The notes beneath the pieces are model-generated. The model was not told where the DNA came from. It searched no databases and saw only the letters and a program-made list of their open reading frames with translations. This document shows positions 18,580-41,562 of a stretch of DNA of 64,000 nucleotides, in pieces (position 1 is the first letter of the stretch; every line of letters begins with the position of its first letter). The position numbers were made by a program, and so were the translations under genes. Location of the stretch: positions 124,001-188,000 of the forward strand of contig NZ_JACHLP010000004.1 of assembly GCF_014204525.1 (NCBI RefSeq), given 5' to 3'. This DNA comes from Roseateles oligotrophus (GTDB taxonomy: Bacteria; Pseudomonadota; Gammaproteobacteria; Burkholderiales; Burkholderiaceae_C).

Positions 18580-19248
18580 TCACTGCAATACCCCCTCTGC
18601 ATGGCCCGGGCTGCAATCAAGGCCACGACGGATCTCGGTCCAGGCCGTCACCCAGCCCGCAGCGCGGGAGGCCAACTGCGCCACCGGCAGCTCGGGGTTG
18701 TACAAGGCCGAGCCGATGCCCACCCCGCTGGCGCCGGCCGCGTGGTAGGCGGCCAGATTGTCCAGCGTCACGCCGCCCACGGGGTAGATAGGTGCCTGCG
18801 GCAGCACCGTGCGCCAGGCCTTCAGTGCCGCCGGCGTGACCTGCTCGCCGGGGAAGGCCTTCAGCACCGTGGCCCCGGCCGCCAGCGCCGTGAAGGCCTC
18901 ACTGGGCGTGGCCACGCCTGGCATGGCGAGCAGGCCGGCCGCGCGCGCGGCGGCCACGACCGCCAGGTTCAGATTGGGGGCGATCACCAACTGCCCGCCC
19001 GCCTCGGCGACGCGGGCCACATCGGCGGGCTCCAGCACCGTGCCCGCGCCCAGCAGCGCATCGGCGGGCAGGCTGTCGCGCAGCCGGCGCAGGCTTTGCA
19101 GGGCGCCGGGGCGGTTCAGTGGTACCTCCAGGCAGCGAAAACCGGCCGCGTATAACAGGCTGCCGACCGCCGCCGCTTGCTCGGGCGGCAGGCCGCGCAG
19201 AATGGCCACCAGGGGTGGCAGGGGCGGCGGTGGAAAAGGGGAGCTCAT
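18580..19248 (-). CDS. dgoA: 2-dehydro-3-deoxy-6-phosphogalactonate aldolase
   Basis: Class I aldolase splitting KDPGal into pyruvate and glyceraldehyde 3-phosphate, the last step of the De Ley-Doudoroff galactonate route. The 222-residue protein has LVAILRGLPPEQA at the start, CLEVPLNRPGAL (the galactonate-type version of the catalytic Glu loop, unlike the VTLRT of Eda), LGAGTVLEPADV, PNLN, PGVATPSEA, and the Schiff-base lysine in ATVLKAFPGEQV. It overlaps the dgoK stop codon by four bases. It is the only 2-keto-3-deoxy-phosphoaldonate aldolase visible in the locus and may have to serve the KdgK product as well. Confidence 0.92.
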   Translation of the reverse strand: MSSPFPPPPLPPLVAILRGLPPEQAAAVGSLLYAAGFRCLEVPLNRPGALQSLRRLRDSLPADALLGAGTVLEPADVARVAEAGGQLVIAPNLNLAVVAAARAAGLLAMPGVATPSEAFTALAAGATVLKAFPGEQVTPAALKAWRTVLPQAPIYPVGGVTLDNLAAYHAAGASGVGIGSALYNPELPVAQLASRAAGWVTAWTEIRRGLDCSPGHAEGVLQ

Positions 19249-20156
19249 GGGCTTGTCTCCGTCGGGGTTTGCAGCGCTTGCAGCGCCGCCACCAGGCATT
19301 GATCGGGGTCCAGTGCGTGCAGGGTCAGGCCCTGGCGGGCGGCGGCGCGGGTGTACCAATGCGCCAGCCCTGGCGCGGCCACCAGGCTCGCACTGTGTAT
19401 CTGCCTGGCCTGCAACTCCAGCCCGATCAGCAGGCCGGACAAGCGGGCTGCAACCTCGGCCGGTGGCTGCGGCTCGTCGGTCAGCAAGGCCTGGGCGCGC
19501 AGGCGAAACAGCTGCGCCAGCCCGCCGCCTTCGCGCGCCCATTGCAAGCCCTCGTCGAAGGCGGACTCGTGGGCCGGGATGGGGGCGGGGGGCTCGTCGC
19601 CCCCGGCCACGGCCGACAGGCAGCTGTGGCGGCGCAGCAGGGCAAACAGCTCGCCCGTCATGGCACTGTGCATGGTCAACACCCGGCCGTTCTCCACCTG
19701 CGCCCATTTGCTGTGCGTGCCGGGCAGCAGCACCCAGCCGTTTTGTGGCCGCAGCCGCCAGGCGCCCAGCAACTGGGTTTCCTCGCCGCGCATCACGTCA
19801 TGCGGGCCCAGCGGCGGGCGCTGGCACAGGCCGGGCAGCAGGCGTATCTGCGGATCGGCGGCCAGGGGCGTGGCGGCCTCGCCCAGCCCGTGTAGATGGC
19901 AGGGCAGGGGCAGGTAGGGCGCCTCCTGCCAGCCGCTGCGGCTGCCGACCATGCCGCTGAGCCAGACCTGCGCCGGCGCCTGCGCGCGCCAGTCGCCGAT
20001 CAGCGACTGCAGCTCGGCGGCAAAGTCGCGCTGGCCGCCCGGCGGCGTGGCCAGCACGCCGGCCGCGTCCTGGCGCTGCGCCAGCAAACAGCCTTGCGCG
20101 TCCAGCCAGTAGGCGCGGCGGTTGCTGCTGCCCCAATCCACTCCAATGGTATTCAT
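19245..20156 (-). CDS. dgoK: 2-dehydro-3-deoxygalactonokinase
   Basis: A 303-residue kinase that phosphorylates 2-keto-3-deoxygalactonate at O-6. The N-terminal phosphate loop is IGVDWGSSNRRAYWLD (family IGVDWGTSxxRaw), and further family blocks are WLSGMVGSRSGWQEAPYLPL, VMRGEETQLLGAW, LLPGTHSKWA and MTGELFALLR. It begins at ATG 20156; an upstream ATG at 20225 lies inside the operator. The gene is transcribed divergently from the dehydratase, with the regulator palindrome between them, and is followed by dgoA with a four-base overlap. Confidence 0.93.
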   Translation of the reverse strand: MNTIGVDWGSSNRRAYWLDAQGCLLAQRQDAAGVLATPPGGQRDFAAELQSLIGDWRAQAPAQVWLSGMVGSRSGWQEAPYLPLPCHLHGLGEAATPLAADPQIRLLPGLCQRPPLGPHDVMRGEETQLLGAWRLRPQNGWVLLPGTHSKWAQVENGRVLTMHSAMTGELFALLRRHSCLSAVAGGDEPPAPIPAHESAFDEGLQWAREGGGLAQLFRLRAQALLTDEPQPPAEVAARLSGLLIGLELQARQIHSASLVAAPGLAHWYTRAAARQGLTLHALDPDQCLVAALQALQTPTETSP

Positions 20157-20179
20157 CGTTTTCCCTAGGAAGCGCCGGC

Positions 20180-20227
20180 TTGTCACGAACCGGCTTTGTG
20201 ATACACAATGAGTTAACGTTAACACAT
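20180..20227 (+). promoter_or_regulatory. Divergent promoter with perfect LacI-type operator
   Basis: The palindrome GTTAACGTTAAC is at 20212-20223, extended by ATGA on the left and ACAT on the right to an almost complete 20-base palindrome (20208-20227). On the plus strand it sits just after a possible promoter, TTGTCA at 20180-20185 and CACAAT at 20204-20209 (18-base spacer), so the bound protein would cover the transcription start. The same 12-mer recurs at 33110. A LacI-family regulator is encoded 3.5 kb downstream, making it the probable ligand-responsive repressor of both dgoKA and the dehydratase operon. Confidence 0.8.
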
Positions 20228-20251
20228 GACATGGCGATTGTCACCGACTCC

Positions 20252-21990
<1,739 letters not shown>

Positions 21991-21991
<1 letters not shown>

Positions 21992-22761
21992 TGGCTAACT
22001 CTAAATTCGCACGCTACCCGAGCCTGGCCGGGCGCGCCGTGCTGGTCACCGGCGGCAGCTCGGGCATAGGTGCCGACCTGGTGCAGGCTTTTGCCGAGCA
22101 GGGTTGCCGCGTGGCTTTCACCGGGCGCAGCGCGGCCTCGGCCGCCCAGGTGCTGCGAGCCTGCGCGGGCGCGGCCCATGAGCCGGTCTTCCTGCCCTGC
22201 GATATGCGCGATGTGGCCGCCGTGCAGGCCGCCGTGGCGGCGGTGGAGGCCAGGCTGCAGGGCCTGCATGTGCTGCTCAATAACGCGGCCGATGACACCC
22301 GGCACGAGTTTCTCGGCCTGTCGAGCGAGGGCTTTGACGACGCCATGGCCATCAATCTGCGCGCGCACTTCTTCGCCGCCCAGGCGGCCATGCCGGCCCT
22401 GGTGCGCGGCGGTGGCGGCAGCCTGATCAATGTCGGCTCGACCAGCTGGAAGAACAAGGTGGCCGGCTATGCCGCCTATGCCACTTGCAAATCGGCGATG
22501 ACGGGGCTGACGCGCAGCCTGGCGCGCGAGTTCGGCGCCCAGCGCGTGCGCGTCAACACGCTGACGCCGGGCTGGGTGATGACGGCCAAACAGCTGGAGA
22601 AGTGGGTGGACGAGGCCGGCGAGCGCGAGATGGACGCCTGCCAATGCCTGCCCGGCCGCATCCAGGGTGTTGATGTGGCCCAGCTGGCGCTGTTCCTGGC
22701 GGCCGACGACAGCGCCATGATCACCGCCCAGGAATTCGTCATTGATGCGGGATGGACCTGA
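21991..22761 (+). CDS. SDR-family sugar 1-dehydrogenase (galactose/fucose type)
   Basis: A 256-residue short-chain dehydrogenase. It has the NAD(P) glycine motif VTGGSSGIGADLV (near residue 20), NNAADDT, the catalytic serine in NVGSTSWKNKV and the catalytic pair YATCK (Tyr/Lys). The C-terminus ends AQEFVIDAGWT, as in sugar dehydrogenases that oxidise D-galactose or related aldoses to the lactone. Immediately downstream is a lactonase and upstream a sugar-acid dehydratase, the order expected for aldose, lactone, aldonate, 2-keto-3-deoxyaldonate. D-galactose is the best fit with dgoK/dgoA; L-fucose or L-arabinose are alternatives since the family is promiscuous. Confidence 0.8.
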
Positions 22762-22762
22762 T

Positions 22763-23692
22763 ATGCAGGCCCGCTGCATCTGGGATGCTCGCTGCCAGCT
22801 CGGCGAAGGCCCGGTCTGGCACCAGGGCCGGCTGTACTTCGTCGATATCCATGGCGCCGCCGTCCATGCCCATGAGCCGGCCAGCGGGCGGCAGCAGCGC
22901 TGGTCGCTGCCAAGGCGCATCGCCTGGTTGATGCCGGATCAACAGGGCGATGGCTTCATCGCCGGGCTGGATGACGAGGTGGTGAGGCTGCAGCTGGAGC
23001 CAACCCTGCTCATCAGGCCCTGGGTGAAGCCACCGCTGCCGGCCGGCGTGCGCCTGAACGATGCCAAGCGTGACCGCTGGGGTCGCATCTGGGCCGGCTC
23101 CATGCACGAGCGCGAGCCTGCCAGCGCCCAGGGGGTGCTGGCCTGCCTGGAGCCCGACGGCCGCTGGCGCGTGGCCCAGCCAGCCTACGGCATCGCCAAC
23201 GGCCCCACCTTCAGTCCGGACGGCACGACCCTGTACCACGCCGACAGCGCGCGTGCCGAGGTCCATGCCTACGCGATGGACGCGGCGGGACGGCTCGGCC
23301 CGCCGCGCCTGTGGCGCAGCTTTGGCGCGGGCGAGGGCGTGCCCGACGGCATGTGTACCGATAGCGAAGGCGCGCTGTGGATCGCCCAGTGGGGCGGCCA
23401 CGGCCTGGGCCGCTACGCACCGGACGGGCGTTTGCTGGCGCGCATCGACCTGCCGGTGTCCCAGGTCAGCAGCTGCTGTTTCGGCGGGGAGGGCGGGCGC
23501 CAGCTCTACATCACCACGGCCCGCACCGGCCTTTCCGAGGCCGCCCTGGCGCATGAGCCGCTGGCCGGCGCGCTATTCGTGGCCGAACCGCCGGTGCCCG
23601 GGCTGGGGCCGGATGCCACCCTGGGATCTTCCACTACATCCGTGTGGGCGCAGAGCGGCCACGCGACAATGGGGGCTGCATGTGAACGCTAA
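22763..23692 (+). CDS. SMP-30/gluconolactonase-family lactonase
   Basis: A 309-residue six-bladed beta-propeller lactone hydrolase. Metal-binding residues are visible: Glu in CQLGEGPVWHQG near residue 14, Asn in GVRLNDAKRDRWGRIWAGSM, and Asp in VPDGMCTDSEGALWIAQWGG. The enzyme should open the sugar lactone made by the preceding dehydrogenase. It starts one base after that gene's stop codon. The open frame allows a start at 22742 inside the upstream gene, but ATG 22763 agrees with family starts. The stop codon lies inside a possible operator preceding the regulator gene. Confidence 0.88.
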   Translation: MQARCIWDARCQLGEGPVWHQGRLYFVDIHGAAVHAHEPASGRQQRWSLPRRIAWLMPDQQGDGFIAGLDDEVVRLQLEPTLLIRPWVKPPLPAGVRLNDAKRDRWGRIWAGSMHEREPASAQGVLACLEPDGRWRVAQPAYGIANGPTFSPDGTTLYHADSARAEVHAYAMDAAGRLGPPRLWRSFGAGEGVPDGMCTDSEGALWIAQWGGHGLGRYAPDGRLLARIDLPVSQVSSCCFGGEGGRQLYITTARTGLSEAALAHEPLAGALFVAEPPVPGLGPDATLGSSTTSVWAQSGHATMGAACER

Positions 23693-23693
23693 C
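23682..23693 (+). promoter_or_regulatory. Possible autoregulatory operator upstream of the LacI gene
   Basis: GTGAACGCTAAC matches the operator GTTAACGTTAAC at 10 of 12 positions, with one mismatch in each half. It ends 21 bases before the regulator's start codon. A 10/12 match can occur by chance a few times in a window this size, so position is the main support. Confidence 0.4.
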
Positions 23694-23714
23694 AGCCAGG
23701 GAAGATCCAAATCC

Positions 23715-24809: not shown

Positions 24810-24827
24810 CATAACTAACAATTCAAA

Positions 24828-26231
24828 ATGACCGCTATCGCCGAACCCGCCTTGCCCAGCCAGACCGCCGCCGATGATCAGGAACGCGACGGCCGGGGGC
24901 GTCCGCTGTGGCGGCAAGGCAGCCTGGTCTATGGCTTGGGCGGCCTGGTGGTTTTGTTCGCCTTCTTGCTGATCGGCGACTTTGCCTGGAGCCTGAAAGA
25001 GCGCGCCGTCACGCCCATGGCCCAGGTGTTGCTGCGCCAGTTGCAGGCCAGCGACTTCTTCATCGCCCTGGTGGTGGGCTCCTTCCCCGCCGCCCTGGGC
25101 CTGCTGCTGGGCCCCGTCGTCGCCGTGCGTTCGGACCGCCATCGCGGCCGCATGGGCCGGCGCATCCCCTATTTGCTGCTGCCCATGCCCCTGGTCGTCG
25201 GCGGCCTGCTGGGCATGGCCGTCACCCCGCAGGCCGGGGCCTTGCTGCACGATTTGCTCGGTGGGCTGTCGCCCGGCCTGCGCTTGTGCAATCTGGCCTG
25301 GTTCGCGCTGATGTGGACCCTGTTCGAGGTGGCCTCGGTGACCGCCAACGCGGTGTTCGGCGGCCTGATTGCCGACGTCGTGCCGGCCCGGCTGACCGGC
25401 CGTTTCTACGGCCTGTTCCGCGCCACCGGCCTGCTTGCCGGCATTGGCTTCACCTACCATGTGCTGGGCCATGCGCAGCAGTATTTCGCCTGGATCTTCA
25501 GCGGCATCGCCCTGATCTACGGCCTGGGCTTTGCGCTGATGTGCTGGCGCGTGCGCGAGGGCAGCTACCCCCCGCCCGAGCCGGCGGCGCCTGGGGCGCA
25601 GGGGGCAGGGGAGGTGCGGCGTTATCTGCGCGAATGCTTCAGCCAGCGCTTCTATCTGCTGCTGTTCTTCGCCATGATGCTGGGCCTGGTGGCCGGCAAT
25701 CCGATCAACGGTTTCGGCGTGTTCTATGCCCAGCAAGTGGGCCTGGGGCTGGACGGCTACGGCAAGGCCCTGGCCCTGACCTATACCTGCTCGCTGCTGC
25801 TGGCCCTGCCGGTGGGCTGGTTGGCCGACCGCTGGCACCCGCTGCGCGTGGGCCTGGTTTCCATCGCCCTGTATGCGCTGGCCATGTTGGCGGCCGGCTG
25901 CTGGGTGCGTGACGCGCAGCAGTTTTCACAAGCCTTCATCGTGCATGGGGTGCTCTCGGGCATCTACCTGACCGGCACGGCGGCGCTGGGCCAGTATCTG
26001 TTTCCGCGCGAACGCTTTGCCCAGTTCCACTCGGCCATGAATCTGCTGGCGGCACTGGGCTATATGCTGGTGCCACCGGCCATGGGCGCCTGGCTGGATG
26101 CCACCGGTCACCACTACCACCACACCTTCATCGTCAGCGGCGTGCTGGCCGCCGTGTCGGGCCTGCTCTATCTGTGGTTGCTGCGGCCCTTCCAGGCGCT
26201 GGGTGGCCCCGGCGGCTATCGCGCGCCCTGA
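24828..26231 (+). CDS. MFS transporter, probable oligosaccharide/uronide importer
   Basis: A 467-residue inner-membrane protein with about twelve hydrophobic helices. The cytoplasmic loop between helices 2 and 3 is SDRHRGRMGRRIPYLL, a motif A-like sequence seen in MFS and sugar-cation symporters; the C-terminal half has the repeat GWLADRWHPLRVG. The central loop is Pro/Ala-rich (YPPPEPAAPGAQGAG). Between the regulator and the uronate genes, it most likely brings the unsaturated oligosaccharides or monosaccharides released in the periplasm into the cytoplasm, where GH88 and GH35 (which lack signal peptides) would act. The substrate is inferred from context. Confidence 0.85.
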   Translation: MTAIAEPALPSQTAADDQERDGRGRPLWRQGSLVYGLGGLVVLFAFLLIGDFAWSLKERAVTPMAQVLLRQLQASDFFIALVVGSFPAALGLLLGPVVAVRSDRHRGRMGRRIPYLLLPMPLVVGGLLGMAVTPQAGALLHDLLGGLSPGLRLCNLAWFALMWTLFEVASVTANAVFGGLIADVVPARLTGRFYGLFRATGLLAGIGFTYHVLGHAQQYFAWIFSGIALIYGLGFALMCWRVREGSYPPPEPAAPGAQGAGEVRRYLRECFSQRFYLLLFFAMMLGLVAGNPINGFGVFYAQQVGLGLDGYGKALALTYTCSLLLALPVGWLADRWHPLRVGLVSIALYALAMLAAGCWVRDAQQFSQAFIVHGVLSGIYLTGTAALGQYLFPRERFAQFHSAMNLLAALGYMLVPPAMGAWLDATGHHYHHTFIVSGVLAAVSGLLYLWLLRPFQALGGPGGYRAP

Positions 26232-26300
26232 AAGGCGCGCCCAATCCCCTGATCCTGAGCACCAAGGGGTTTCCCCTGTGAATGCTTGGCGCATTGATCT

Positions 26301-26312
26301 GGTATCGTTAAC
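26301..26312 (+). promoter_or_regulatory. Operator-like site before the isomerase gene
   Basis: GGTATCGTTAAC matches GTTAACGTTAAC at 10 of 12 positions, with a perfect right half CGTTAAC, followed by ATATAC as at the other sites. It lies 30 bases before the start codon, in the promoter region of the uronate operon that begins here. TTGATC at 26294-26299 and TATACA at 26314-26319 may be promoter elements, although the spacer is short. Confidence 0.55.
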
Positions 26313-26342
26313 ATATACAAAACACAAACACGCATCATCACC

Positions 26343-27146
26343 ATGTCCGAACATTTCCACACCATCCCGAGCACCCCCGGTCATCACCCGCTGCAGGGCC
26401 TCAGCTGCCAGTTGCTGGGTTTCGAGAAGTTGGTATTGCTGCCCGGCCATGTCCATGAGGGCCGCTGCGTGGCCGAGCGTGAAACCCTGCTGGTGGTGCT
26501 CTCGGGCACGGCCACCGTGCAGGTGGGCGAGCAGCGCTTCGAGCGCGTCGGCGGCCGCGCCAATGTCTTTGCCGGCAAGCCGCACAGCGTCTACCTGCCG
26601 CGCGGTGCCCGCTACCAGCTTGAAGCCGGCACGCGCTTCGAGGCCGCCCTGGTCAGCACCCCGTCGAACCTGGACGTTCCGGCCTACGAGATCCGTCCCG
26701 ACGCGGTGCGCACCGGCAGCTGGGGCGCGCTGAACTACACCCGCCATTTCCGCGAGATCCTGACCCTGCCCGACGGCCAGCCGGCCGCCAGCCTGATCGT
26801 CGGCGAGACCCTCACGCCCTCGGGCAACTGGAGCACCTACCCGCCGCACAAGCACGAGCGTGAGGAAGGCGGCGAAGTGTTCCACGAAGAAATCTATTAC
26901 TTCCGCGTCGCCTCGCCCGAGGGCTTCGGCCTGGCCCGGCATTTCAGCCCCGAGCGCGGCTTTGACACCACCCACACGGTGCGCGACGACTCGCTGCTGT
27001 CCATCCCCTACGGCTACCACACCTATGCCGCCGCACCTGGCGCGCAGAGCTACTACCTGTGGGCCCTGGCCGGCAATGGCCGGCGCCAGGGCGTGGCCTT
27101 GCTGCCCGAGCTGGCCTGGACGCAGAAGCTGGTGGGCATGGCCTGA
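26343..27146 (+). CDS. KduI/IolB-family isomerase (IolB-like) in a uronate operon
   Basis: A 267-residue double cupin of the KduI/IolB family. The sequence is closer to IolB (5-deoxyglucuronate isomerase): SGNWSTYPPHKHE, EEIYYFRVASPEGFGLARHF, DTTHTVRDDSLLSIPYGYHT and a C-terminal YYLWALAGNGR, whereas classical KduI carries MPCHTHERRMEVYFYF-type blocks. Metal ligands would be the histidines of PPHKHE plus Glu and the late His in GYHT. No inositol genes are nearby; the neighbours are KduD, KdgK and an unsaturated glucuronyl hydrolase, so the inferred role is isomerisation of 4-deoxy-5-ketouronate to 3-deoxy-2,5-diketogluconate, the KduI step. This substrate switch is inference. Confidence 0.8.
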   Translation: MSEHFHTIPSTPGHHPLQGLSCQLLGFEKLVLLPGHVHEGRCVAERETLLVVLSGTATVQVGEQRFERVGGRANVFAGKPHSVYLPRGARYQLEAGTRFEAALVSTPSNLDVPAYEIRPDAVRTGSWGALNYTRHFREILTLPDGQPAASLIVGETLTPSGNWSTYPPHKHEREEGGEVFHEEIYYFRVASPEGFGLARHFSPERGFDTTHTVRDDSLLSIPYGYHTYAAAPGAQSYYLWALAGNGRRQGVALLPELAWTQKLVGMA

Positions 27147-27161
27147 GCGAGGGTGAGTCAG

Positions 27162-27929
27162 ATGCAAACGAGCGCAGACCTCTTTCGTCTGGACGGGCGG
27201 CTGGCCCTGGTGACGGCCGGCGCCAGCGGCATCGGCCAGGCCCTGGCCATCGGCCTGGCCCAGGCCGGCGCGGACCTGATCGTCACCCGCCACCATCAGG
27301 GCTGCGAGGCGACGGTGGCCGCCATCGAGGCGCTAGGCCGGCGCTGCCAGGTGATGGACGCCGACCTGTCCGATGCGGCCGTGCCGGAACGCCTGATCGA
27401 GGCCGTGGTGGCCAGGCATGGGCGCCTGGATGTGCTGGTCAACAATGCCGGCGCCATCCGCCGCGCCGCCGCCGAGGATGTCAGCAGTGAGGACTGGCAT
27501 GCGGTGTTGCAGCTCAATCTGCATGCCGCCTGGCAGCTGGCGCAAAGCGCCGGGCGCCAGATGCTGGACCAGGGCCAGGGCCGCATCATCAATATCGCCT
27601 CCCTGCTTTCGATGCAGGGCGGTATCCGCGTGCCCGCTTATGCGGCCAGCAAGCATGGGCTGCTGGGCCTGACGCGGGCGCTGGCGAATGAGTGGGCCGG
27701 CCGTGGCGTGGGCGTCAATGCCATCGCGCCGGGTTATATAACGACCGCCAACACCGCGCCCTTGCGGGCCGACCCGCAGCGCGAGCGCCAGGTGCTGGAG
27801 CGCATCCCGGCCGGGCGCTGGGGCCAGCCGGCCGACCTGGTGGGTGCGGCCGTGTTTCTGGCCTCGCCGGCCGCCGCCTATGTACACGGGCAATTGCTGG
27901 CCGTGGACGGCGGATGGATGGCACGATGA
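27162..27929 (+). CDS. kduD: SDR dehydrogenase, 2-dehydro-3-deoxygluconate 5-dehydrogenase type
   Basis: A 255-residue short-chain dehydrogenase with TAGASGIGQALA, NNAGAIRRAAAEDVS, INIASLLSMQGG, catalytic YAASK and NAIAPGYITTANTAPLR. The pattern agrees with KduD, which reduces 2,5-diketo-3-deoxygluconate to 2-keto-3-deoxygluconate. It follows the isomerase by 15 bases and overlaps kdgK by four, as expected for consecutive steps. The start is ATG 27162, eight bases after GAGGG; a GTG at 27153 is in frame but too close to the ribosome site. An alternative reading is a 2-keto-3-deoxy-L-fuconate dehydrogenase, which belongs to the same broad family and would fit the fucosidases. Confidence 0.8.
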   Translation: MQTSADLFRLDGRLALVTAGASGIGQALAIGLAQAGADLIVTRHHQGCEATVAAIEALGRRCQVMDADLSDAAVPERLIEAVVARHGRLDVLVNNAGAIRRAAAEDVSSEDWHAVLQLNLHAAWQLAQSAGRQMLDQGQGRIINIASLLSMQGGIRVPAYAASKHGLLGLTRALANEWAGRGVGVNAIAPGYITTANTAPLRADPQRERQVLERIPAGRWGQPADLVGAAVFLASPAAAYVHGQLLAVDGGWMAR

Positions 27930-28837
27930 GCCCCCGGCCCGAATTGCTGGCCCTGGGCGAGTGCATGGTGGAGCTCTGCGGCGAGACGGCGCTGGGTGCG
28001 CAGGGCAGTCCGCTGCGCCTGGGCTATGGCGGCGATGTGCTGAATGCCCTGGTTAGCGCCGCGCGGCTGGGCACGCGCACCGGCTTCATCACCCGGGTCG
28101 GCGCCGACCCCTTCGCGCCGGGCCTGCTCCAGGCCTGGCGCCAGGAGGGCGTGGACCTGCGTCACGCGCAACTGCTCCCCGGCGTCAACGGCGTCTATTT
28201 CATCAGCCAGCTGCCCGGCGGCGAGCGCGATTTCAGCTACCGCCGCCAGGGCAGCGCGGCGGCTGGTCTGCAACCCGACGATGTGCCGGACGAGGCCTTG
28301 GCCGGTGCACGGGCGCTGCTGCTGTCGGGCATCACCCAGGCGTTGTCAGCCAGCGCCCGCGCGGCCACGCTCAAGGCCGCGCAGCGTGCCCGGGCTCTGG
28401 GCCTGTGGGTGGCTTACGACCCCAATTACCGCCCTGCGCTCTGGGCCGGCCAAGGCGGCGAGGCGGCCGCGCGCGAGGCCTTGCACGAAGTGCTGCCCCA
28501 TGTGAACTGGCTGCTGCCCAGCGCTCCGGCCGATCTGCCGCTGCTGCAAGGCCTGTCCCTGCCTGGTCCGGCGCTGGCGCTGAAATGTGGCGCGGAGGGC
28601 GTCCGCCTGCAGCTGCCGGGCGGGGGCATGCAGGTCCTGCCCGCCGTGCCGGTCACGCACATCGTTGACAGCACCGGTGCGGGCGACGCCTGGAACGGCG
28701 CTTTTTTACATGGCTTGCTGCGCCAGGCCGGGCCCGAGGAGGCGGCCCTGCTGGCCAATCAGGTGGCGGCTCGCAGCCTGGGCTTTCGCGGTGCCATTCC
28801 CGGGCCGGCGCCGCACCCAAGCCTCACCAGTCACTGA
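27926..28837 (+). CDS. kdgK: 2-dehydro-3-deoxygluconokinase (PfkB family)
   Basis: A 303-residue ribokinase-type sugar kinase with LALGECMVELCG at the N-terminus, LGYGGDVLNALVSAARLG as the substrate-binding region, AYDPNYRPALWAG, and the PfkB signature DSTGAGDAWNGAFLHGLL containing the catalytic Asp near residue 254. It phosphorylates 2-keto-3-deoxygluconate to KDPG. Its ATG overlaps the kduD stop codon. No separate KDPG aldolase (eda) is seen in the window; dgoA is the only candidate nearby. Confidence 0.9.
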   Translation: MSPRPELLALGECMVELCGETALGAQGSPLRLGYGGDVLNALVSAARLGTRTGFITRVGADPFAPGLLQAWRQEGVDLRHAQLLPGVNGVYFISQLPGGERDFSYRRQGSAAAGLQPDDVPDEALAGARALLLSGITQALSASARAATLKAAQRARALGLWVAYDPNYRPALWAGQGGEAAAREALHEVLPHVNWLLPSAPADLPLLQGLSLPGPALALKCGAEGVRLQLPGGGMQVLPAVPVTHIVDSTGAGDAWNGAFLHGLLRQAGPEEAALLANQVAARSLGFRGAIPGPAPHPSLTSH

Positions 28838-33096: not shown

Positions 33097-33125
33097 TTGA
33101 GATCAATATGTTAACGTTAACTTAT
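33097..33125 (+). promoter_or_regulatory. Promoter with perfect LacI-type operator before the TonB receptor
   Basis: GTTAACGTTAAC occupies 33110-33121, identical to the site at 20212. A possible -35 TTGAGA (33097-33102) and -10 ACTTAT (33120-33125) with a 17-base spacer bracket it, so repressor binding would block RNA polymerase. It starts the outer-membrane/glycosidase operon, 130 bases before the receptor start codon. Confidence 0.75.
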
Positions 33126-33252: not shown

Positions 33253-36126
33253 ATGCAAGCAAACCCTTACAGCCACCCCGCGCTGCGGCCGACCGCCCTG
33301 GCCCTGGCCGTTTTCACCCTTTGCCTGGCCCAGCCGGCCGCGCGAGCGCAGACCGCTGCGGCGCCGGCTTCGGCCAGCACCAAGCTGGAGGCGGTGGTGG
33401 TGACCGGCATCCGCGCGTCCAAGGAAAAGTCCTTGACGACCAAGCGCTATGCCGATGGCGTGACCGATGTGGTCAGCGCCGAGGACATCGGCAAGATGCC
33501 CGACAAGAACGTGGCCGATGCGCTGCAGAAGCTGCCCGGCGTGACGACCACGGCCGGCACCGGCGGGCAGGGGGGTTATGACGAGAACGACCGGGTGAGC
33601 CTGCGCGGCACCGGCCCCAGCCTGGCGCTGACGACCATCAACGGCCATTCGGTCGCCACGGCCGACTGGGATGCCTCGGACCAACTGGCCGGCGGCGCCG
33701 GCAGCGCCGGCTCCGGCGCGGCGCGCAGCGTCAGCTACCTGCTCTTTCCGTCGGAGATCGTCAGCCAGGTGATGGTTCACAAGAGTTCGCAGGCCGATCA
33801 GGTCGAGGGCGGTGTGTCCGGCGCCGTCAACATCGTCACGCGCCGTCCGCTGGAGTTCAAGAAGCCGCTGACCGTGGAAGCCTCGGTGCAGGCCGTGTAT
33901 TCCGACCTGGCCGGCAAGACCGATCCGCAATTGAGCGCCCTGCTCAACTGGAAGAGCCCGACCGGCAGCGTGGGCGTGATGCTGCAGGCCTTCGATCAGA
34001 AGCGCCATGTGCGCCGCGACAGCCAGAACATCAGCTGGGGTCTGGTGTCGCCGACCTCGGCGGCGGGCCAGGCCAATGGCGGGCAATTGAGCGGCAAGGT
34101 CTATGCCAACGCCATCACCCAGACGGTGTTCCAGCAGGAGCGCCAGCGCAGGGGCGGGCTGCTGGGCATCGAGCTGGCGCCGCTGGAGGGGCTCAAGCTG
34201 GGTGTCGAGGCCTTCCAGTCCAAGCTGGATGCACGTTATGTCCAGAATCAGTTCGTCGTCAGGCCGGGCAATTCGGTCGGTGGCGGCATCGTGCCGACCC
34301 ACGCCCAGCTGAGTGGCGATCTGCTGAGCGCCGCCCAGTTCAACAACACCGGCAACGCCACCGGCGCGCAGCTGGAGACCTTCTCCAACCCCAATGCATC
34401 GTCCTCCACCAACTACCTGAACGCCGACTTCAAATACCAGGTCAGCGACGCGCTGAAGTTGTCGGGCCAACTGGGCACGACCAAGGCTGAGGGCAATACC
34501 TATCTCTACTGGAACTACATCTTTCTGCCCAATACGGCCACCTCCTATGCCTACAACGGGGCCGACAAGGCCTTGACGGTGGGGCTGCCCGGGGGCTTGA
34601 GCGCTGCCAACCTCACCTATCTGCCCGGCAATAGCGGGGCCGACAACAGCTATAGCCTGCAGCGCAGCGTCGACAAGGAAGACTACCGGCGGCTGGACGC
34701 CGAGTACGGCTTCAACGAGGGTTGGTTGCACAGCCTCAAGTTCGGCTGGCGCGACACCTCGCATCGGCGCGAGGGCTCGCGCCCGCTCAAGGGCGGCCCG
34801 CCGGTCAACGCGACGAACAACGGCGCCAGCCTCGTCACCTCCATTCCCACCTGGAGCGGCAACAGCTTCTACCCGTCCGACTTCGGCAGCGCACTGGGCG
34901 CCGGCTTCCCCACGGCCAGCATGCCGCTGATCTCCACGGACGAGATCGTCAGCTGGTCCAAGGCCAATCTGCCGGTCGGCAGCGGCAACTACAACCTGCC
35001 GGTATCGGGCGTGTTCACCGTCAAGGAGGACACCCGGGCGTTCTACGGCATGGTCAAGTTCGGCGGCGACAGCTGGCGTGGTGACCTGGGGCTGCGCCAT
35101 GTGAAGACCAAGGTACAGGTGACGACCAATCAGGGCGTGCCCTGCGGCGTGCCGCGCCCCACCAACACCATCACCTTCGGCAGCCAGGCCCAGACCGATG
35201 CCTGCGTCGGCGGCGGCTTCGTGCCCGAGGGGGCGACGCTGGTGACCGGTTCGCGCTTCGGCAACTTCATCGTGCAGACCACGGACAGCGACTACAGCAA
35301 TGTGCTGCCCAGCGCCAACCTCAGCTTCGACGCCACCAAGGATCTGGTGCTGCGTGCCAGCGCTGCCAAGGTGATGGCGCGGCCCGACTACAGCGCCCTG
35401 GGCGCCACGCTCAGCGGCTTTGGCTACAACCTCGCCAACATCCCGCCCTCCACGGCCTCGGGTGGCAGTGCCACGCTCAAGCCGGTCGTGGCCAAGAGCT
35501 ATAACCTGGGCATCGAGTGGTACTTCCAGCCGCGCGCCCTGCTGTCGGTGCAGCTGTTCAGGCTTGAGTTCGACTCGCTGATCGGTGCCGGCACGTCCAT
35601 GCAGAACCTGCTCAACACCGCCATCCCCACCGGCCTGGGCGGCCCCCAGATCGTGCCCACCTTGGTGAGTTCGCCCAAGAACACCACCGGCCGTTCGCAG
35701 GGCATCGAGCTGGGCTATGAGCAGCCGCTGTTCCGTGGCTTTGGGGTGCAGGCGAACTACACCTATGTGGATGCCAAGGAGGAGAACGGCATGCCGCTGC
35801 TGGGTGCTTCGAAGAACTCCTACACCCTGGGCGGCTACTACGAGGAGGGGGCCTTCAGCACACGCCTGACTTATTCGCAGCGCGGCAAGGCGCGCGTCGG
35901 CCTGTACGGCCTGTCGCAGAACTATGCGGCGCCGACGGGAACCCTGGCGGCCTCGCTGAACTACAGCGTGAACGACAGGCTGACGCTGACCTTCGAGGGC
36001 CTGAATCTGAACAACCCCAAGCTGCGCTACTACAACGCGCCGAGTGCTACTGTTCCGATGGAAACCACGACCGCCTTGCACAGCAGTGGCCGCCAGTTCT
36101 ATATGGGCGCGCGGATGAAGTTCTGA
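33253..36126 (+). CDS. TonB-dependent receptor, Xanthomonas/Caulobacter carbohydrate type
   Basis: A 957-residue outer membrane transporter. After a signal peptide (ALAVFTLCLAQPAARAQ) comes the TonB-box region LEAVVVTGIRAS and the plug domain (VTDVVSAEDIGKMPDKNVAD, ALQKLPGVTTTAG, RVSLRGTGPSLALTTINGHS, PSEIVSQVMVHKSSQADQVE with GGVSGAVNIVTRRPL). The beta-barrel fills the rest and ends GRQFYMGARMKF. The IGKMPDKNVAD plug belongs to the receptor group typical of complex carbohydrate uptake in Xanthomonas and Caulobacter. It lies downstream of the locus operator and before the glycosidases, so it probably imports oligosaccharides cut by the PL8 lyase. GGAG six bases before ATG 33253 supports the start. 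Confidence 0.93.
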   Translation: MQANPYSHPALRPTALALAVFTLCLAQPAARAQTAAAPASASTKLEAVVVTGIRASKEKSLTTKRYADGVTDVVSAEDIGKMPDKNVADALQKLPGVTTTAGTGGQGGYDENDRVSLRGTGPSLALTTINGHSVATADWDASDQLAGGAGSAGSGAARSVSYLLFPSEIVSQVMVHKSSQADQVEGGVSGAVNIVTRRPLEFKKPLTVEASVQAVYSDLAGKTDPQLSALLNWKSPTGSVGVMLQAFDQKRHVRRDSQNISWGLVSPTSAAGQANGGQLSGKVYANAITQTVFQQERQRRGGLLGIELAPLEGLKLGVEAFQSKLDARYVQNQFVVRPGNSVGGGIVPTHAQLSGDLLSAAQFNNTGNATGAQLETFSNPNASSSTNYLNADFKYQVSDALKLSGQLGTTKAEGNTYLYWNYIFLPNTATSYAYNGADKALTVGLPGGLSAANLTYLPGNSGADNSYSLQRSVDKEDYRRLDAEYGFNEGWLHSLKFGWRDTSHRREGSRPLKGGPPVNATNNGASLVTSIPTWSGNSFYPSDFGSALGAGFPTASMPLISTDEIVSWSKANLPVGSGNYNLPVSGVFTVKEDTRAFYGMVKFGGDSWRGDLGLRHVKTKVQVTTNQGVPCGVPRPTNTITFGSQAQTDACVGGGFVPEGATLVTGSRFGNFIVQTTDSDYSNVLPSANLSFDATKDLVLRASAAKVMARPDYSALGATLSGFGYNLANIPPSTASGGSATLKPVVAKSYNLGIEWYFQPRALLSVQLFRLEFDSLIGAGTSMQNLLNTAIPTGLGGPQIVPTLVSSPKNTTGRSQGIELGYEQPLFRGFGVQANYTYVDAKEENGMPLLGASKNSYTLGGYYEEGAFSTRLTYSQRGKARVGLYGLSQNYAAPTGTLAASLNYSVNDRLTLTFEGLNLNNPKLRYYNAPSATVPMETTTALHSSGRQFYMGARMKF

Positions 36127-36153
36127 TCTGTCGACTTTCGGGCAGGCCTGCAT

Positions 36154-36177
36154 GGCGGGCCGGCCCGCCTGATTTTT
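36154..36177 (+). terminator. Rho-independent terminator-like hairpin after the TonB receptor
   Basis: GGCGGGCC (36154-36161) and GGCCCGCC (36162-36169) form a compact hairpin followed by TGATTTTTC. It would reduce transcription from the receptor into the glycosidase genes, giving more receptor than enzyme. Confidence 0.65.
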
Positions 36178-36204
36178 CAATACATTCCGTCAACACCTGA
36201 TCTG

Positions 36205-38289: not shown

Positions 38290-38317
38290 GCCCCCATTTC
38301 CTAAGCAGGATGTGACT

Positions 38318-40126
38318 GTGAGCTGTTTGACTATCTCCGGATCTGAGCTTGCGCTCAACGGCCAGCCCTGGCGCCTGCTGGCCGGCGCCATCCACTACTT
38401 CCGCGTCTTGCCCGAGCAATGGGAGGACCGCCTGCTCAAGCTGCGCGCCATGGGGCTGAACACGGTCGAGACCTATGTGGCCTGGAATCTGCACGAGCCC
38501 GAGCCCGGCCGCTTCGACTTCGACGGCGCGCTCGACCTGGTGGCCTTTGTGCGCCTGGCCGAGCGCCTGGGCCTGAAGGTGATCGTCCGGCCCGGGCCCT
38601 ATATCTGCGCCGAATGGGAGTTTGGTGGCCTGCCGGCCTGGCTGCTGGCCGACCCCGACATGGTGCTGCGCAGCAGCTATGGGCCCTATCTGGCGGCGGT
38701 GGAGCGCTTCTTCGCCGAGCTGCTGCCGCGCCTGCTGCCGCTGCAGGCCGAAGCCGGCGGGCCCATCCTGGCCATGCAGGTCGAGAACGAGTACGGCAGC
38801 TACGGCAGCGACCAGGACTATCTGCGCTGGCTGGAGGGCAGTCTGCGCCGTCACGGCGTTACGGGCCTGCTGTTCACCTCCGACGGCCCGACCGATCACA
38901 TGCTGACCCACGGCACGCTGGCCGGCGTGCTCAAGACCGGCAACTTCGGTTCGCGCGTGCCCTCCGAGCTGGCCAAGCTGCGCGAATACCAGCCCGAGGG
39001 CCCGCTGATCTGCATGGAGTTCTGGAACGGCTGGTTCGACCACTGGGGCGAGCCCCACCACACGCGCGACGCGGCCGACGCGGCCGACTGCCTGGGCCAG
39101 ATCCTGGCCCACGGCGCCTCGGTGAATATCTTTATGTTCCATGGCGGCACCAGCTTTGGCTGGATGAACGGCGCCAACACGGACCGTGACAGCGGCGTCT
39201 ACCAGCCCACCGTCAACAGCTACGACTACGACGCGCCGCTGGCCGAGGACGGCAGCATCACGCCCAAATACCTGGCCATGCGCGAGGCCGTGGGCCGCCA
39301 TATGGGGCTGTCGGCGCTGCCGCCGCTCGATCTGCCGCCCGAAGTGCCGCGTTTCAGCCATGCACCGCTGCCGCTACAGGCCGGGCCGCTGCTGTGGCAG
39401 AGCCTGGATCTCGACCACCCCGTGCTGACGGCAGCGACGCCGCGCAGCATGGAGCGCCTGGGCCAGGCCTATGGCCATGTGCTTTACCGCAGCCGCATGC
39501 GCCATCCGGCCGGGCCGGTCCAGCTCTCGGTGCAGGCGCTGGCGGACCGCGCCCTGGTCTTTTTGAACGGCCGGCCGCAAGGCGTGCTGGCGCGCGATGG
39601 CGCCCTCAGCCTGCAGCTCGACTGGCCCGGCGGCGAGGCCTGCCTGGACCTGCTGGTGGAAAACCAGGGCCGGGTGAACTACGGCCCCTTTCTGCACGAC
39701 CGCAAGGGCTTGCTCGGCTGGGTACGCCTGGGGATCAACCTGATCCAGCATTGGGAGCACCACAGCCTGCCGCTGGCCACGCCGCCGGCGCTGGCCGGCC
39801 TGCCGGTGGACAGGGGCGTCGCCGGGCCGCGCTTCTTCAGCGCCGATTTCGAGGTGGGCGTTCCTGGTGACGGCTTCCTCGCCATCGCGGGCGGCCACAA
39901 GGGCCAGGTCTGGATCAATGGCTTCAACCTCGGCCGCTACTGGGAGCGCGGGCCGCAGACCGAGCTTTATCTGCCCTGGCCGCTGCTGCGGCCGGGCAGC
40001 AACCAGCTGGTCTTGCTGGAGCTGGAGGCCGAGGCCGGCACGGCCCTGACGGCAAGCATCCATGCCCAGCGGCCGCAGGCGACGCAGGTGGTGGACATGG
40101 CGCCAACGCTGGCCGAGCTGTGGTGA
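38318..40126 (+). CDS. GH35 beta-galactosidase
   Basis: A 602-residue retaining beta-galactosidase. The barrel starts ELALNGQPWRLLAGAIHYFR and carries NTVETYVAWNLHEP, RPGPYICAEWEFGGLPAWL, acid/base Glu158 in VENEYGSYG and nucleophile Glu234 in CMEFWNGWFDHWG, followed by FMFHGGTSFGWMNGAN. The C-terminal third is beta-sandwich jelly rolls ending WINGFNLGRYWERGPQTELY. There is no signal peptide, so it acts in the cytoplasm. Two GTG starts are possible; GTG 38318 has AGGA seven bases upstream, while GTG 38312 is too close. The gene provides galactose for the dehydrogenase-lactonase-dehydratase route of the same locus. Confidence 0.92.
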   Translation: MSCLTISGSELALNGQPWRLLAGAIHYFRVLPEQWEDRLLKLRAMGLNTVETYVAWNLHEPEPGRFDFDGALDLVAFVRLAERLGLKVIVRPGPYICAEWEFGGLPAWLLADPDMVLRSSYGPYLAAVERFFAELLPRLLPLQAEAGGPILAMQVENEYGSYGSDQDYLRWLEGSLRRHGVTGLLFTSDGPTDHMLTHGTLAGVLKTGNFGSRVPSELAKLREYQPEGPLICMEFWNGWFDHWGEPHHTRDAADAADCLGQILAHGASVNIFMFHGGTSFGWMNGANTDRDSGVYQPTVNSYDYDAPLAEDGSITPKYLAMREAVGRHMGLSALPPLDLPPEVPRFSHAPLPLQAGPLLWQSLDLDHPVLTAATPRSMERLGQAYGHVLYRSRMRHPAGPVQLSVQALADRALVFLNGRPQGVLARDGALSLQLDWPGGEACLDLLVENQGRVNYGPFLHDRKGLLGWVRLGINLIQHWEHHSLPLATPPALAGLPVDRGVAGPRFFSADFEVGVPGDGFLAIAGGHKGQVWINGFNLGRYWERGPQTELYLPWPLLRPGSNQLVLLELEAEAGTALTASIHAQRPQATQVVDMAPTLAELW

Positions 40127-40167
40127 AACAAGCGGCAGATTCATTCAGAACAACACAGGAGGCTTGC

Positions 40168-41562
40168 ATGAACAATAACTCTGAATTAAGACGACATCTG
40201 GCGCTGGCCTGCCTGGCCCTGGCGCTGGGCGGCGCAGCGCCAGGGCTGGCGGCGCAGGCCGCGCCGGCCGCCCCGCAACTGGCCGATCCGCTCAACCGCA
40301 AGGCCGACTACGGCTGGTTCGTCAACGAGCGCTTCGGCATGTTCATCCACTTCGGCCTCTATGCCAATGCGGCGCGCCATGAATGGATCATGAACAAAGA
40401 GAAGCTGTCGGTAGAGGCCTACCGCAAATACTTCGACAGCTTCAACCCCGACCTCTTCGATGCCCGCGCCTGGGCCAGATCGGCCAAGGCCGCCGGCATG
40501 AAGTACATGGTGCTGACGGCCAAGCACCACGAGGGCTTTGCGCTGTGGGACACCCAGCTGAGTGACTACAAGATCAGCAATACCGCCTTCAAGCGCGACC
40601 TGGTGCGCGAGTTTGTGGACGCGGCCCGGGCCGAGGGCCTGAAGGTGGGCTTCTACTACTCGCTGATCGACTGGCACCACCCCGAGTTTCCTATCGACGG
40701 CTACCACCCGCTGCGCGAGGACGAGACGGCGAAGAAAGTCCCGCGCGATATGGCCAAGTACCGCAGCTTCATGCACGGCCAGGTGCGCGAGCTGCTGAGC
40801 AATTACGGCAAGATCGACTACCTCTGGTTCGACTTCTCCTACCCGAACCGGCCCAAGGACTGGAGCTGGGGCCAGGGCAAGGGCCGCGAGGACTGGCACA
40901 GCGAGGAACTGGTCAAGCTGGTGCATCAGTTGCAGCCGCGCATCCTGCTGAACAACCGGCTGGACCTGCCCGGCGGCGTGCAGACGCCCGAGGATCACCA
41001 GCCCAGGTTCGATGGCCTGGCGAGCGAGTTCAAGCTGACCGAGGAATGCCACACGCTCTACGACTCCTGGGGCTATAGGCGCGACACGGTGGCCTGGAAG
41101 TCCAGCGAAGCGGCGGTGCGCCTGCTGGTCGATGCGGTCTCCAAGGGCAACAACCTCTTGCTCAATGTCGGCCCCAACGGCCGGGGTGAATTCGAGCCCG
41201 GTGTGCAGAGCCGCCTGGCCGCCCTGGGCGAGTGGACCCGACTGCACGGCCGCGCCATCCAGGGCGCGGGCGCCAGCGCCTTCACCGCCCCCGATGGCAC
41301 GCGCTACACCCAGCGCGGCAAGCGGCTCTATCTGCATCTGCAGAACTACCCCATGGGTGGCGTGGAACTGCCTGGCCTGGCCGGCAAGGTCAGCTACGCG
41401 CAGTTCCTGCACGACGGTTCCGAGATCCAGTTCAAGGAGCCGCAGCCCAGGAATCTGCAGAACAACGCGCATGTGAGCGTCAGTGAAAACGCCATCCGCC
41501 TGAGCCTGCCCATGAACCGGCCCGAGCTGCTGCTGCCGGTGGTGGAGCTCTTTTTGAAGTGA
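40168..41562 (+). CDS. GH29 alpha-L-fucosidase, second type, exported
   Basis: A 464-residue fucosidase with a Sec signal peptide (LALACLALALGGAAPGLAA). The barrel begins WFVNERFGMFIHFGLYANAA and continues with LTAKHHEGFALWDTQ, FYYSLIDWHHPEFP and the nucleophile Asp222 in YLWFDFSYPNRP. A short beta-sandwich forms the C-terminus. No discoidin domains are present, in contrast to the first GH29 gene. GGAGG five bases before ATG 40168 is a strong ribosome site. It is the last gene of the receptor-glycosidase operon. Confidence 0.92.
   Translation: MNNNSELRRHLALACLALALGGAAPGLAAQAAPAAPQLADPLNRKADYGWFVNERFGMFIHFGLYANAARHEWIMNKEKLSVEAYRKYFDSFNPDLFDARAWARSAKAAGMKYMVLTAKHHEGFALWDTQLSDYKISNTAFKRDLVREFVDAARAEGLKVGFYYSLIDWHHPEFPIDGYHPLREDETAKKVPRDMAKYRSFMHGQVRELLSNYGKIDYLWFDFSYPNRPKDWSWGQGKGREDWHSEELVKLVHQLQPRILLNNRLDLPGGVQTPEDHQPRFDGLASEFKLTEECHTLYDSWGYRRDTVAWKSSEAAVRLLVDAVSKGNNLLLNVGPNGRGEFEPGVQSRLAALGEWTRLHGRAIQGAGASAFTAPDGTRYTQRGKRLYLHLQNYPMGGVELPGLAGKVSYAQFLHDGSEIQFKEPQPRNLQNNAHVSVSENAIRLSLPMNRPELLLPVVELFLK

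What the first reader, a model, noticed from the sequence alone, without database searches (positions are those of the whole stretch)
18580..41562. Sixteen-gene polysaccharide utilisation locus for a uronate, galactose and fucose glycan
Seen: PL8 lyase, GH88 hydrolase, GH35 galactosidase, two unlike GH29 fucosidases, a TonB receptor of the Xanthomonas/Caulobacter carbohydrate type, an MFS permease, a LacI regulator and two complete 2-keto-3-deoxy acid routes. Known: PL8 plus GH88 releases unsaturated uronate; GH35 and GH29 release galactose and fucose. Inference: the substrate is a polymer holding all three sugars. No hexosaminidase, GlcNAc/GalNAc catabolic gene or sulfatase is inside the locus, which argues against hyaluronan or chondroitin, the usual PL8 substrates. 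A fucose- and galactose-containing bacterial exopolysaccharide or plant/algal glycuronan is more likely. I know of no described locus with this gene set.
Basis: partly seen in the sequence, partly recalled or inferred. Interest (0 to 1): 0.78.

Follow-up and report, generated by a model that had tools for sequence, protein, structure and literature searches.

The report
Acquired glycan-eating gene island
A compact 16-gene island that one bacterium seems to have acquired as a block should let it cut up, import and burn a complex sugar polymer containing glucuronic acid, galactose and fucose; the exact polymer is not known, and plant root slime is one good candidate.

Summary
In detail: all 16 genes are at 18,580-41,562, with the families named. 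Corrections: the "KduI" gene is IolB-type, and the uronate route has no aldolase of its own in the locus.

The block is a discrete insertion: in 7 of 7 congeners fetched (of 17) its flanking genes adjoin. It looks like one regulon: the LacI-type palindrome GTTAACGTTAAC stands exactly at two promoters, with a weaker copy before the IolB-type gene, and similar sites precede PL8 in many relatives.

The PL8 lyase is nearest to xanthan lyases in sequence and predicted fold, but GL1 residues Y315/R612 (pyruvate contacts, recalled) and the other xanthan enzymes are missing. The two congeners with a PL8 locus, and Rugamonas, keep PL8, GH88, GH35 and the TonB receptor without GH29, so fucose looks like an add-on here.

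Best reading: exported lyase and fucosidases, TonB/MFS import, cytosolic GH88 and GH35, a complete galactose route and a glucuronate route. The substrate is unproven; fucosylated galactan with glucuronomannan branches, as in grass root mucilage, fits best. New variant of a known kind.

The parts
18580..19248 (-). dgoA, 2-dehydro-3-deoxy-6-phosphogalactonate aldolase (start at ATG 19248)
   Evidence: NF006600 241.5 bits over cut-off 207; PF01081; start read
19245..20156 (-). dgoK, 2-keto-3-deoxygalactonokinase
   Evidence: PF05035 260 bits; start read
20209..20226 (.). palindromic operator TGAGTTAACGTTAACACA in the divergent dgoK/ilvD promoter region
20231..21991 (+). IlvD/Edd-family sugar-acid dehydratase (galactonate dehydratase by context)
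   Evidence: PF00920/PF24877; NF004784 902 bits over cut-off 539, next L-arabinonate dehydratase 829 under cut-off 882
21991..22761 (+). SDR sugar 1-dehydrogenase (galactose dehydrogenase by context)
   Evidence: PF13561; best NCBIfam D-xylose 1-dehydrogenase, below cut-off
22763..23692 (+). SGL/SMP-30 lactonase (galactonolactonase by context)
   Evidence: PF08450 237.8 bits
23715..24809 (+). LacI-family regulator
   Evidence: PF00356 + PF13377; 76% identical over 352 residues in G671
24828..26231 (+). MFS permease, probable oligosaccharide/sugar importer of the inner membrane
   Evidence: PF07690; 68-71% identical in G668, G671, G034
26301..26312 (.). weaker operator copy GGTATCGTTAAC (2 mismatches) upstream of the IolB-type gene
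26343..27146 (+). IolB-type isomerase, inferred to do the KduI step (5-keto-4-deoxyuronate isomerase)
   Evidence: PF04962; TIGR04378 196.7 vs KduI 24.2 bits; only PF04962 protein of the genome; 79% identical beside kduD in G668/G671
27153..27929 (+). kduD, 2-dehydro-3-deoxy-D-gluconate 5-dehydrogenase
   Evidence: TIGR01832 339.8 bits over cut-off 338.85
27926..28837 (+). PfkB kinase, probable KDG kinase
   Evidence: PF00294; NF052444 115 bits, below cut-off 400
28854..30020 (+). GH88 unsaturated glucuronyl hydrolase, no signal peptide seen (cytosolic)
   Evidence: PF07470; unsaturated glucuronyl hydrolases 305-309 bits; N-terminus
30079..33024 (+). PL8 lyase with C-terminal CBM96, signal peptide
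33107..33124 (.). palindromic operator TATGTTAACGTTAACTTA upstream of the TonB receptor
33253..36126 (+). TonB-dependent receptor of the Xanthomonas/Caulobacter type; no SusD partner among the 16 genes
   Evidence: TIGR01782 558.5 bits
36205..38289 (+). GH29 alpha-L-fucosidase with F5/8-type C domain(s), twin-arginine-like signal
   Evidence: PF01120; best PDB 8ayr 628 bits; N-terminus
38312..40126 (+). GH35 beta-galactosidase, no signal peptide seen
   Evidence: PF01301 392.5 bits; best PDB 4mad 574 bits
40168..41562 (+). GH29 alpha-L-fucosidase, second type, signal peptide
   Evidence: PF01120 279.6 bits; best PDB 6gn6 378 bits
18533..41757 (.). whole inserted block (left edge somewhere in 18466-18532, right edge 41757-41760)

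Best explanation
A horizontally acquired, self-contained glycan-utilisation island under one LacI regulator. Proposed flow: the exported PL8 cuts a glucuronate bond of the xanthan side-chain type (hexose linked to O4 of GlcA) and leaves an unsaturated glucuronyl end. The two exported fucosidases strip fucose. The TonB receptor and the MFS permease bring the product in. Cytosolic GH88 removes the unsaturated glucuronate and cytosolic GH35 removes beta-galactose. Galactose goes through the De Ley-Doudoroff route (SDR, lactonase, IlvD/Edd, DgoK, DgoA). Unsaturated glucuronate goes through the IolB-type isomerase, KduD and a PfkB kinase, then an aldolase. Shown: genes, families, insertion, shared palindrome. 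Inferred: export sides (by eye), order of steps, sugar identity, regulation by this LacI protein. My substrate guess, about 0.3 by itself: a fucosylated galactan with glucuronomannan branches such as grass root mucilage. A glucuronomannan would offer the lyase the same Man-GlcA-Man motif as the xanthan side chain (linkages of glucuronomannan recalled).
For: Families of all 16 genes. Exact palindrome GTTAACGTTAAC at the divergent dgoK/ilvD promoter and before the TonB receptor; at up to 2 mismatches the window has 4 sites against 0.09 expected, 0 of 100 shuffles reaching 4, three of them upstream of operons of this locus; the two zero-mismatch places of the 18-base pattern in 5.34 Mb are these. 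Related sites lie within -300..+150 of the PL8 ORF start in 7 of 12 ORFs of the set I took as Pseudomonadota (letter shuffles mean 0.05) and in 0 of 78 other ORFs, and precede the IolB-type gene in G668 and G671. Clean insertion relative to 7 of 7 congeners fetched. PL8 best with xanthan lyases: 466 and 447-451 bits against 346 or less for chondroitin/hyaluronate lyases; predicted fold likewise (GL1 xanthan lyase target TM 0.93-0.94, 35% identity). Catalytic N, H, Y, R, R kept in the window protein. The only PF04962 protein of the genome is the IolB-type one. Maize nodal-root mucilage is galactose 39-42%, fucose 22-30%, mannose 11-14%, arabinose 8-11%, with GlcA (3-5%) as the only uronic acid; the paper repeats a proposed structure of a highly fucosylated galactose backbone with arabinan and mannose-glucuronate branches (PMC7752898, abstract and passages).
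Against: Fucosidases are absent from all 17 other congeners scanned and from the stretches of the nearest relatives, so the core substrate need not be fucosylated. In G034 (same family) the PL8 locus shows no GH35, related TonB receptor or IolB-type hit in the stretches fetched, so even the core is not constant, and no operator site near its PL8. No dedicated fucose, mannose or arabinose gene is among the 16, although root mucilage holds those sugars. The galactose assignment rests on DgoK and DgoA: the best NCBIfam model of the SDR is D-xylose 1-dehydrogenase (below cut-off), and L-arabinonate dehydratase is second for the IlvD protein. The PL8 sits on a long branch (1.3) with unsure placement, and chondroitin AC lyases are structurally almost as close (target TM 0.83-0.91). 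The model has moderate confidence (mean pLDDT 77). At up to two mismatches the genome-wide operator count (5) is no better than the reversed control pattern (4, mismatches not shown). Signal peptides were judged by eye and hydropathy.
Confidence: 0.6

Rival explanations
1. A bacterial exopolysaccharide locus: the substrate is a capsule or slime such as colanic acid or FucoPol, in which a terminal galactose sits on O4 of a side-chain glucuronate, where a xanthan-lyase-like enzyme would cut.
For: Xanthan-lyase-like PL8; GH88, GH35 and GH29 could follow in order; sugar list Fuc, Gal, GlcA fits (polymer structures recalled, no call).
Against: Colanic acid terminal galactose carries pyruvate (recalled), and the two GL1 residues Y315 and R612, which I recall as pyruvate contacts, are missing (but the Paenibacillus xanthan lyase 6f2p lacks them too). 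No beta-glucosidase, esterase or endo-acting glycosidase family among the 16 genes.
Confidence: 0.2
2. Cell-wall glycuronan of Mucoromycota fungi (fucose, mannose, galactose, glucuronic acid) is the food.
For: Mucorales glycuronan is reported as Fuc:Man:Gal:GlcA 5:1:1:6 and mucoran as GlcA:Fuc:Man 5:2:3 (PMC10481521, passages). Named relatives with PL8 include Massilia, Duganella and Rugamonas.
Against: Galactose is a minor sugar there, whereas galactose is the one sugar for which this island carries a full pathway by family.
Confidence: 0.12
3. An ordinary hyaluronan/chondroitin locus, with GH35 and GH29 acting on linker or attached glycans.
For: PL8 plus GH88 is the classical GAG pair; some Paenibacillus PL8 loci carry GH123 (4 of 80 loci hold both GH88 and GH123); nagA-type genes are in the genome; chondroitin AC lyases are the next-best fold matches.
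Against: PL8 of the window and of two relatives scores over 100 bits higher with xanthan lyases than with GAG lyases; no amino-sugar gene in the locus; no GH20 in the genome.
Confidence: 0.12
4. A xanthan-degrading locus.
For: PL8 nearest xanthan lyases; GH88 present.
Against: The published xanthan cluster of P. taichungensis carries GH9 xanthanase and GH38/GH92 mannosidases (PMC12827396, passages); none among the 16 genes. The two PDB xanthan lyases fall in another group of the PL8 tree.
Confidence: 0.06

Closest known systems
Xanthan utilisation cluster of Paenibacillus taichungensis I5 (PMC12827396, passages seen)
   Same: Secreted PL8 that removes a terminal hexose from side-chain GlcA, GH88, transporters and regulators in one cluster.
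   Different: Has GH9, GH38 and GH92 and ABC transport; GH35, GH29, a TonB receptor and a galactose route are not named in the passages seen.
Hyaluronan/chondroitin degradation with UGL and Kdu/Dhu genes (PMC12838403, passages seen)
   Same: Unsaturated glucuronyl hydrolase, then isomerase, reductase, KDG kinase and aldolase.
   Different: Amino-sugar genes are missing here; the isomerase is IolB-type; GH35, GH29 and the De Ley-Doudoroff genes are added.
PL8 loci of congeners G668 and G671 and of Rugamonas aquatica (L014)
   Same: PL8 (39-44%), GH88, GH35 and TonB receptor (61-72% identity), and an operator-like site before PL8.
   Different: No GH29, IlvD, lactonase, DgoK or DgoA hit in the stretches held; no PfkB hit in G668/G671; no IolB, KduD or MFS hit in the Rugamonas stretch.
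TonB-dependent carbohydrate utilisation loci of Xanthomonas/Caulobacter (recalled)
   Same: TonB-Xanth-Caul receptor, LacI, MFS, hydrolases in one locus.
   Different: This enzyme set was not found described in the searches made (listings).

Membership tests
Xanthan utilisation locus | PL8 closest to xanthan lyase | tested here: met
Xanthan utilisation locus | GH9 endoxanthanase and GH38/GH92 alpha-mannosidase in the cluster | tested here: not met
   Pfam of the 16 genes; feature from PMC12827396
Xanthan utilisation locus | GL1-type residues Y315 and R612 (pyruvate contacts, role recalled) | tested here: not met
   not strictly defining, since 6f2p lacks them too
Hyaluronan/chondroitin locus | PL8 plus GH88 | tested here: met
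Hyaluronan/chondroitin locus | PL8 closest to GAG lyases | tested here: not met
Hyaluronan/chondroitin locus | amino-sugar catabolism in the locus | tested here: not met
   nagA-type genes lie elsewhere in the genome
Hyaluronan/chondroitin locus | lyase activity on hyaluronan or chondroitin | not testable with these tools
   needs enzyme assay
Bacteroidota-type PUL | SusC/SusD pair | tested here: not met
   TonB receptor without SusD among the 16 genes
De Ley-Doudoroff galactose route | sugar dehydrogenase, lactonase, sugar-acid dehydratase, DgoK, DgoA together | tested here: met
   families and order; substrate specificity of the first three is inferred
KduI-KduD route | KduI-type isomerase | tested here: not met
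   IolB-type instead
Genomic island | block absent from the same site in relatives | tested here: met
   7 of 7 congeners fetched (of 17)
Genomic island | integrase, IS or flanking direct repeats | tested here: not met
   no such family among the 16 genes; no shared repeat of 9 or more bases between 18351-18620 and 41541-41800

The most novel reading that the evidence does not exclude
A previously undescribed root-mucilage (fucogalactan with glucuronomannan branches) utilisation system in what is probably a Burkholderiales bacterium, with a PL8 lyase of new substrate specificity and an IolB-type enzyme serving as the isomerase of unsaturated glucuronate, moving between strains as a regulated island.
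Probability: 0.22. Interest if true: 0.65.

Novelty: new variant of a known kind. Interest (0 to 1): 0.42.

Why it matters
If right, it gives a ready set of enzymes, an importer and an operator motif for a glucuronate-galactose-fucose glycan, and a testable link between these bacteria and plant or microbial slimes. The IolB-type isomerase would be a further solution to a step that a recent survey assigns to KduI and DhuI (PMC12838403, passages). The substrate range of the PL8 family beyond hyaluronan, chondroitin, xanthan and alginate (the kinds named) would widen.

Tried and rejected
Rejected: xanthan locus (GH9, GH38 and GH92 missing among the 16 genes). Rejected as sole argument: absence of hexosaminidase, since GH88 frees the amino sugar directly. 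Paper searches for the enzyme set: searches returned 0 papers; among the papers listed (1 of 1; 15 of 167; 12 of 44; 20 of 79) none is, by title and start of abstract, about this gene set; they were not opened except PMC12827396 and PMC6157868 (maize aerial-root mucilage, passages seen: galactosidase and fucosidase activities in the mucilage, but also xyloglucan, xylan and arabinogalactan epitopes). In some searches the DgoA and CBM96 queries were cut out of frame (stops set to X), so nothing is concluded from their lack of hits there; DgoA was queried in frame. In some searches the GH29A and GH29B queries hit the same 5 of 80 loci. Long-ORF picking is weak for high-GC loci, so GC3-based picks were used for those. 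The PL8 upstream counts used my own list of Pseudomonadota loci, into which I put the unnamed G668, G671 and G034; the 12 ORFs include G034's gene twice (L010, L011), one second-copy PL8 gene and a mis-picked ORF for L025; L009's and L073's PL8 ORFs were not in the set, although L009 has a site at 710 before its ORF start at 776; the shuffles kept letters, not dinucleotides. The tree used the quick method; the placement of the window PL8 among the Pseudomonadota rows is weak (88). Taxon: no call names the host; its glutamine--tRNA ligase is nearest, at 69.8%, to copies on Achromobacter and Comamonas plasmids, so Burkholderiales is likely, not shown. The GH35 has only relatives under 60% identity on plasmids (57 records).
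Full report
What is there. The window is a 64-kb piece of contig C4 of a 5.34-Mb genome. GC-by-codon-position gene picking and Pfam/NCBIfam confirm the sixteen genes: dgoA and dgoK on the minus strand; then, on the plus strand, an IlvD/Edd dehydratase, an SDR, an SGL lactonase, a LacI regulator, an MFS permease, an IolB-type isomerase, KduD, a PfkB kinase, GH88, PL8 with CBM96, a TonB receptor, GH29, GH35 and GH29. PL8 residues equivalent to N194, H246, Y255, R309 and R313 of GL1 xanthan lyase are kept in the window protein (N194 and R612 are named as mutated positions in PDB titles, the roles are recalled).

It is an inserted block. The two GH29 genes are the only ones in the genome and none occurs in the other 17 genomes of the genus scanned. 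The second GH29 protein has no match at E 1e-60 in 298 other genomes of a family sample. A PL8 match at E 1e-30 occurs in 1 of 298 other genomes of the family sample, in 2 of 17 other genomes of the genus and in 0 of 368 others of a class sample. The tRNA-ligase gene left of the block was found in 17 of 18 genus genomes. In the seven congeners whose region I fetched, that gene, followed in four of them by mipA, stands next to the LytTR/histidine-kinase pair that flanks the block on the right here, with gaps of about 0.1-0.2 kb. Homology with the nearest congener ends in 18466-18532 and resumes at about 41760. No flanking repeat of 9 bases or more was seen. GC is 68.5% inside, 64.8% and 66.1% outside. 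In G668 and G671 the related PL8 locus lies on another contig than this site.

It looks like one regulon. A search for near-palindromes with a central CG picked two A+T-rich sites in the window that share GTTAACGTTAAC: one between dgoK and ilvD, one upstream of the TonB receptor. The window has 4 sites at up to 2 mismatches against 0.09 expected, 0 of 100 shuffles reaching 4: the two exact ones, one upstream of the IolB-type gene, and one at 23682 at the end of the lactonase gene just before lacI. In the whole genome the 18-base pattern has zero mismatches only at these two places; at two mismatches one further place appears, and the reversed control pattern gives 4 matches (their mismatches are not shown), so only the exact sites carry weight there. 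In relatives the motif stands upstream of PL8 in G668, G671 and Rugamonas and upstream of the IolB-type gene in G668 and G671. For the PL8 ORFs picked, 7 of 12 in the set taken as Pseudomonadota and 0 of 78 others have a site; G034 has none.

Nearest relatives. G668 and G671 (same genus) keep GH35, TonB receptor, GH88, KduD, IolB-type gene and MFS at 62-79% identity with a PL8 at 39-40%; LacI is 76% identical (352 residues in G671, 55 at a stretch end in G668); no PfkB hit. Rugamonas aquatica (L014) keeps PL8 (44%), GH35 (63%), TonB receptor (63%), GH88 (61%) and, at the edge of the stretch, the PfkB kinase (55%). G034 keeps MFS, LacI, KduD, GH88 and PL8 but shows no GH35, IolB-type or related TonB-receptor hit in the stretches fetched. 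None of these stretches has a hit to IlvD, the lactonase, DgoK, DgoA or GH29. Of the 80 best loci of the second scan (up to 10 kb each side; at least 534 relatives in all), 17 have GH88, 11 GH35, 5 GH29, 5 GH95 and 5 GH123. Two Paenibacillus loci (L032, L076) combine PL8, GH35, GH29 and GH95, so the lyase-galactosidase-fucosidase association also exists outside Pseudomonadota, without a GH88 hit nearby.

The lyase. phmmer against the PDB: xanthan lyases 466 and 447-451 bits, Streptomyces and Arthrobacter chondroitin lyases 346 and 331, pneumococcal hyaluronate lyase 228 (the Streptomyces protein is named chondroitin AC lyase). The PL8 of G668 and G034 are also nearest to xanthan lyases. The AlphaFold model (12 sequences, mean pLDDT 77.1, pTM 0.72) matches xanthan lyases first (target TM 0.93-0.94, rmsd 2.8-2.9 A for GL1), then chondroitin AC lyases (target TM 0.83-0.91), so the margin in fold is small. 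In a 97-row tree the window protein has a long end branch beside other Pseudomonadota rows with weak support, while the two PDB xanthan lyases lie in a different 14-row group (100). Of the pair Y315/R612, both occur only in GL1 and L081 among the 97 rows. So it works like a xanthan lyase in fold and catalytic residues but is not shown to be one.

Sides and steps. PL8, the TonB receptor and both GH29 have signal-like N-termini; GH88, GH35 and the lactonase do not (by eye and hydropathy). Hence fucose and the lyase cut are outside or periplasmic, and unsaturated glucuronate and galactose are freed inside. Galactose then has a full route by family, although the first three enzymes could serve another sugar: the SDR's best model is D-xylose 1-dehydrogenase, below cut-off. 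Unsaturated glucuronate has isomerase, reductase and kinase but shares or borrows an aldolase. The isomerase is IolB-type and is the only member of its Pfam family in the genome, so it is the candidate for the KduI step. A recent survey of this step treats KduI and DhuI as the isomerases and mentions IolB once, as part of a family name (PMC12838403, passages); its KduI searches may have included such proteins.

Substrate. The island's sugars match maize nodal-root mucilage (PMC7752898, abstract and passages) and Mucorales glycuronan (PMC10481521, passages); bacterial slimes such as colanic acid fit by recall. I rank plant mucilage first because galactose is the sugar with its own pathway and because a glucuronomannan branch carries the xanthan-type Man-GlcA-Man motif (recalled), but this is a guess to be tested. 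Xanthan is unlikely (PMC12827396, passages). Hyaluronan and chondroitin are unlikely but not excluded: nagA-type genes exist elsewhere.

Novelty. No paper on this gene set was seen in the held library (listings). A locus of known kind with a new enzyme combination, well delimited, of moderate interest.

Noticed in passing
window 59555-59909: Three tRNA-Lys genes in a row, one with anticodon TTT and two with CTT.
   Followed up: no
window 41581-41642: Strong hairpin (AACCACAGAGACACGGAGAA...; -34 kcal/mol for the 90 bases folded) between the second GH29 and lytTR, just inside the right edge of the insertion; perhaps a two-way terminator or a mobile repeat.
   Followed up: partly
window 36154-36169: Terminator-like hairpin with T-run between the TonB receptor and the first GH29, as if to lower expression of the glycosidases; the scan as a whole is near chance level (10 found, 8.0 expected).
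   Followed up: no
L007:11625-17118: In G668 the stretch between the IolB-type gene and the MFS gene holds an apparent RES/HEPN toxin-like gene and a protein-kinase-like gene.
   Followed up: no
L014:12835-16017: In Rugamonas aquatica a phospholipase C-type phosphoesterase and an ABC ATPase lie between PL8 and GH35.
   Followed up: no
L017, L024, L025: Massilia/Duganella loci with two PL8 genes and, in L017 and L024, a GH88-family protein fused to DUF4861, with several copies of the operator motif.
   Followed up: partly
L030, L041, L046, L086: Paenibacillus loci pairing PL8 and GH88 with GH123, three of them also with GH35, which looks like a different, amino-sugar-containing substrate.
   Followed up: no
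window 60486-61535: Sulfatase-family protein on the minus strand, outside the locus.
   Followed up: no
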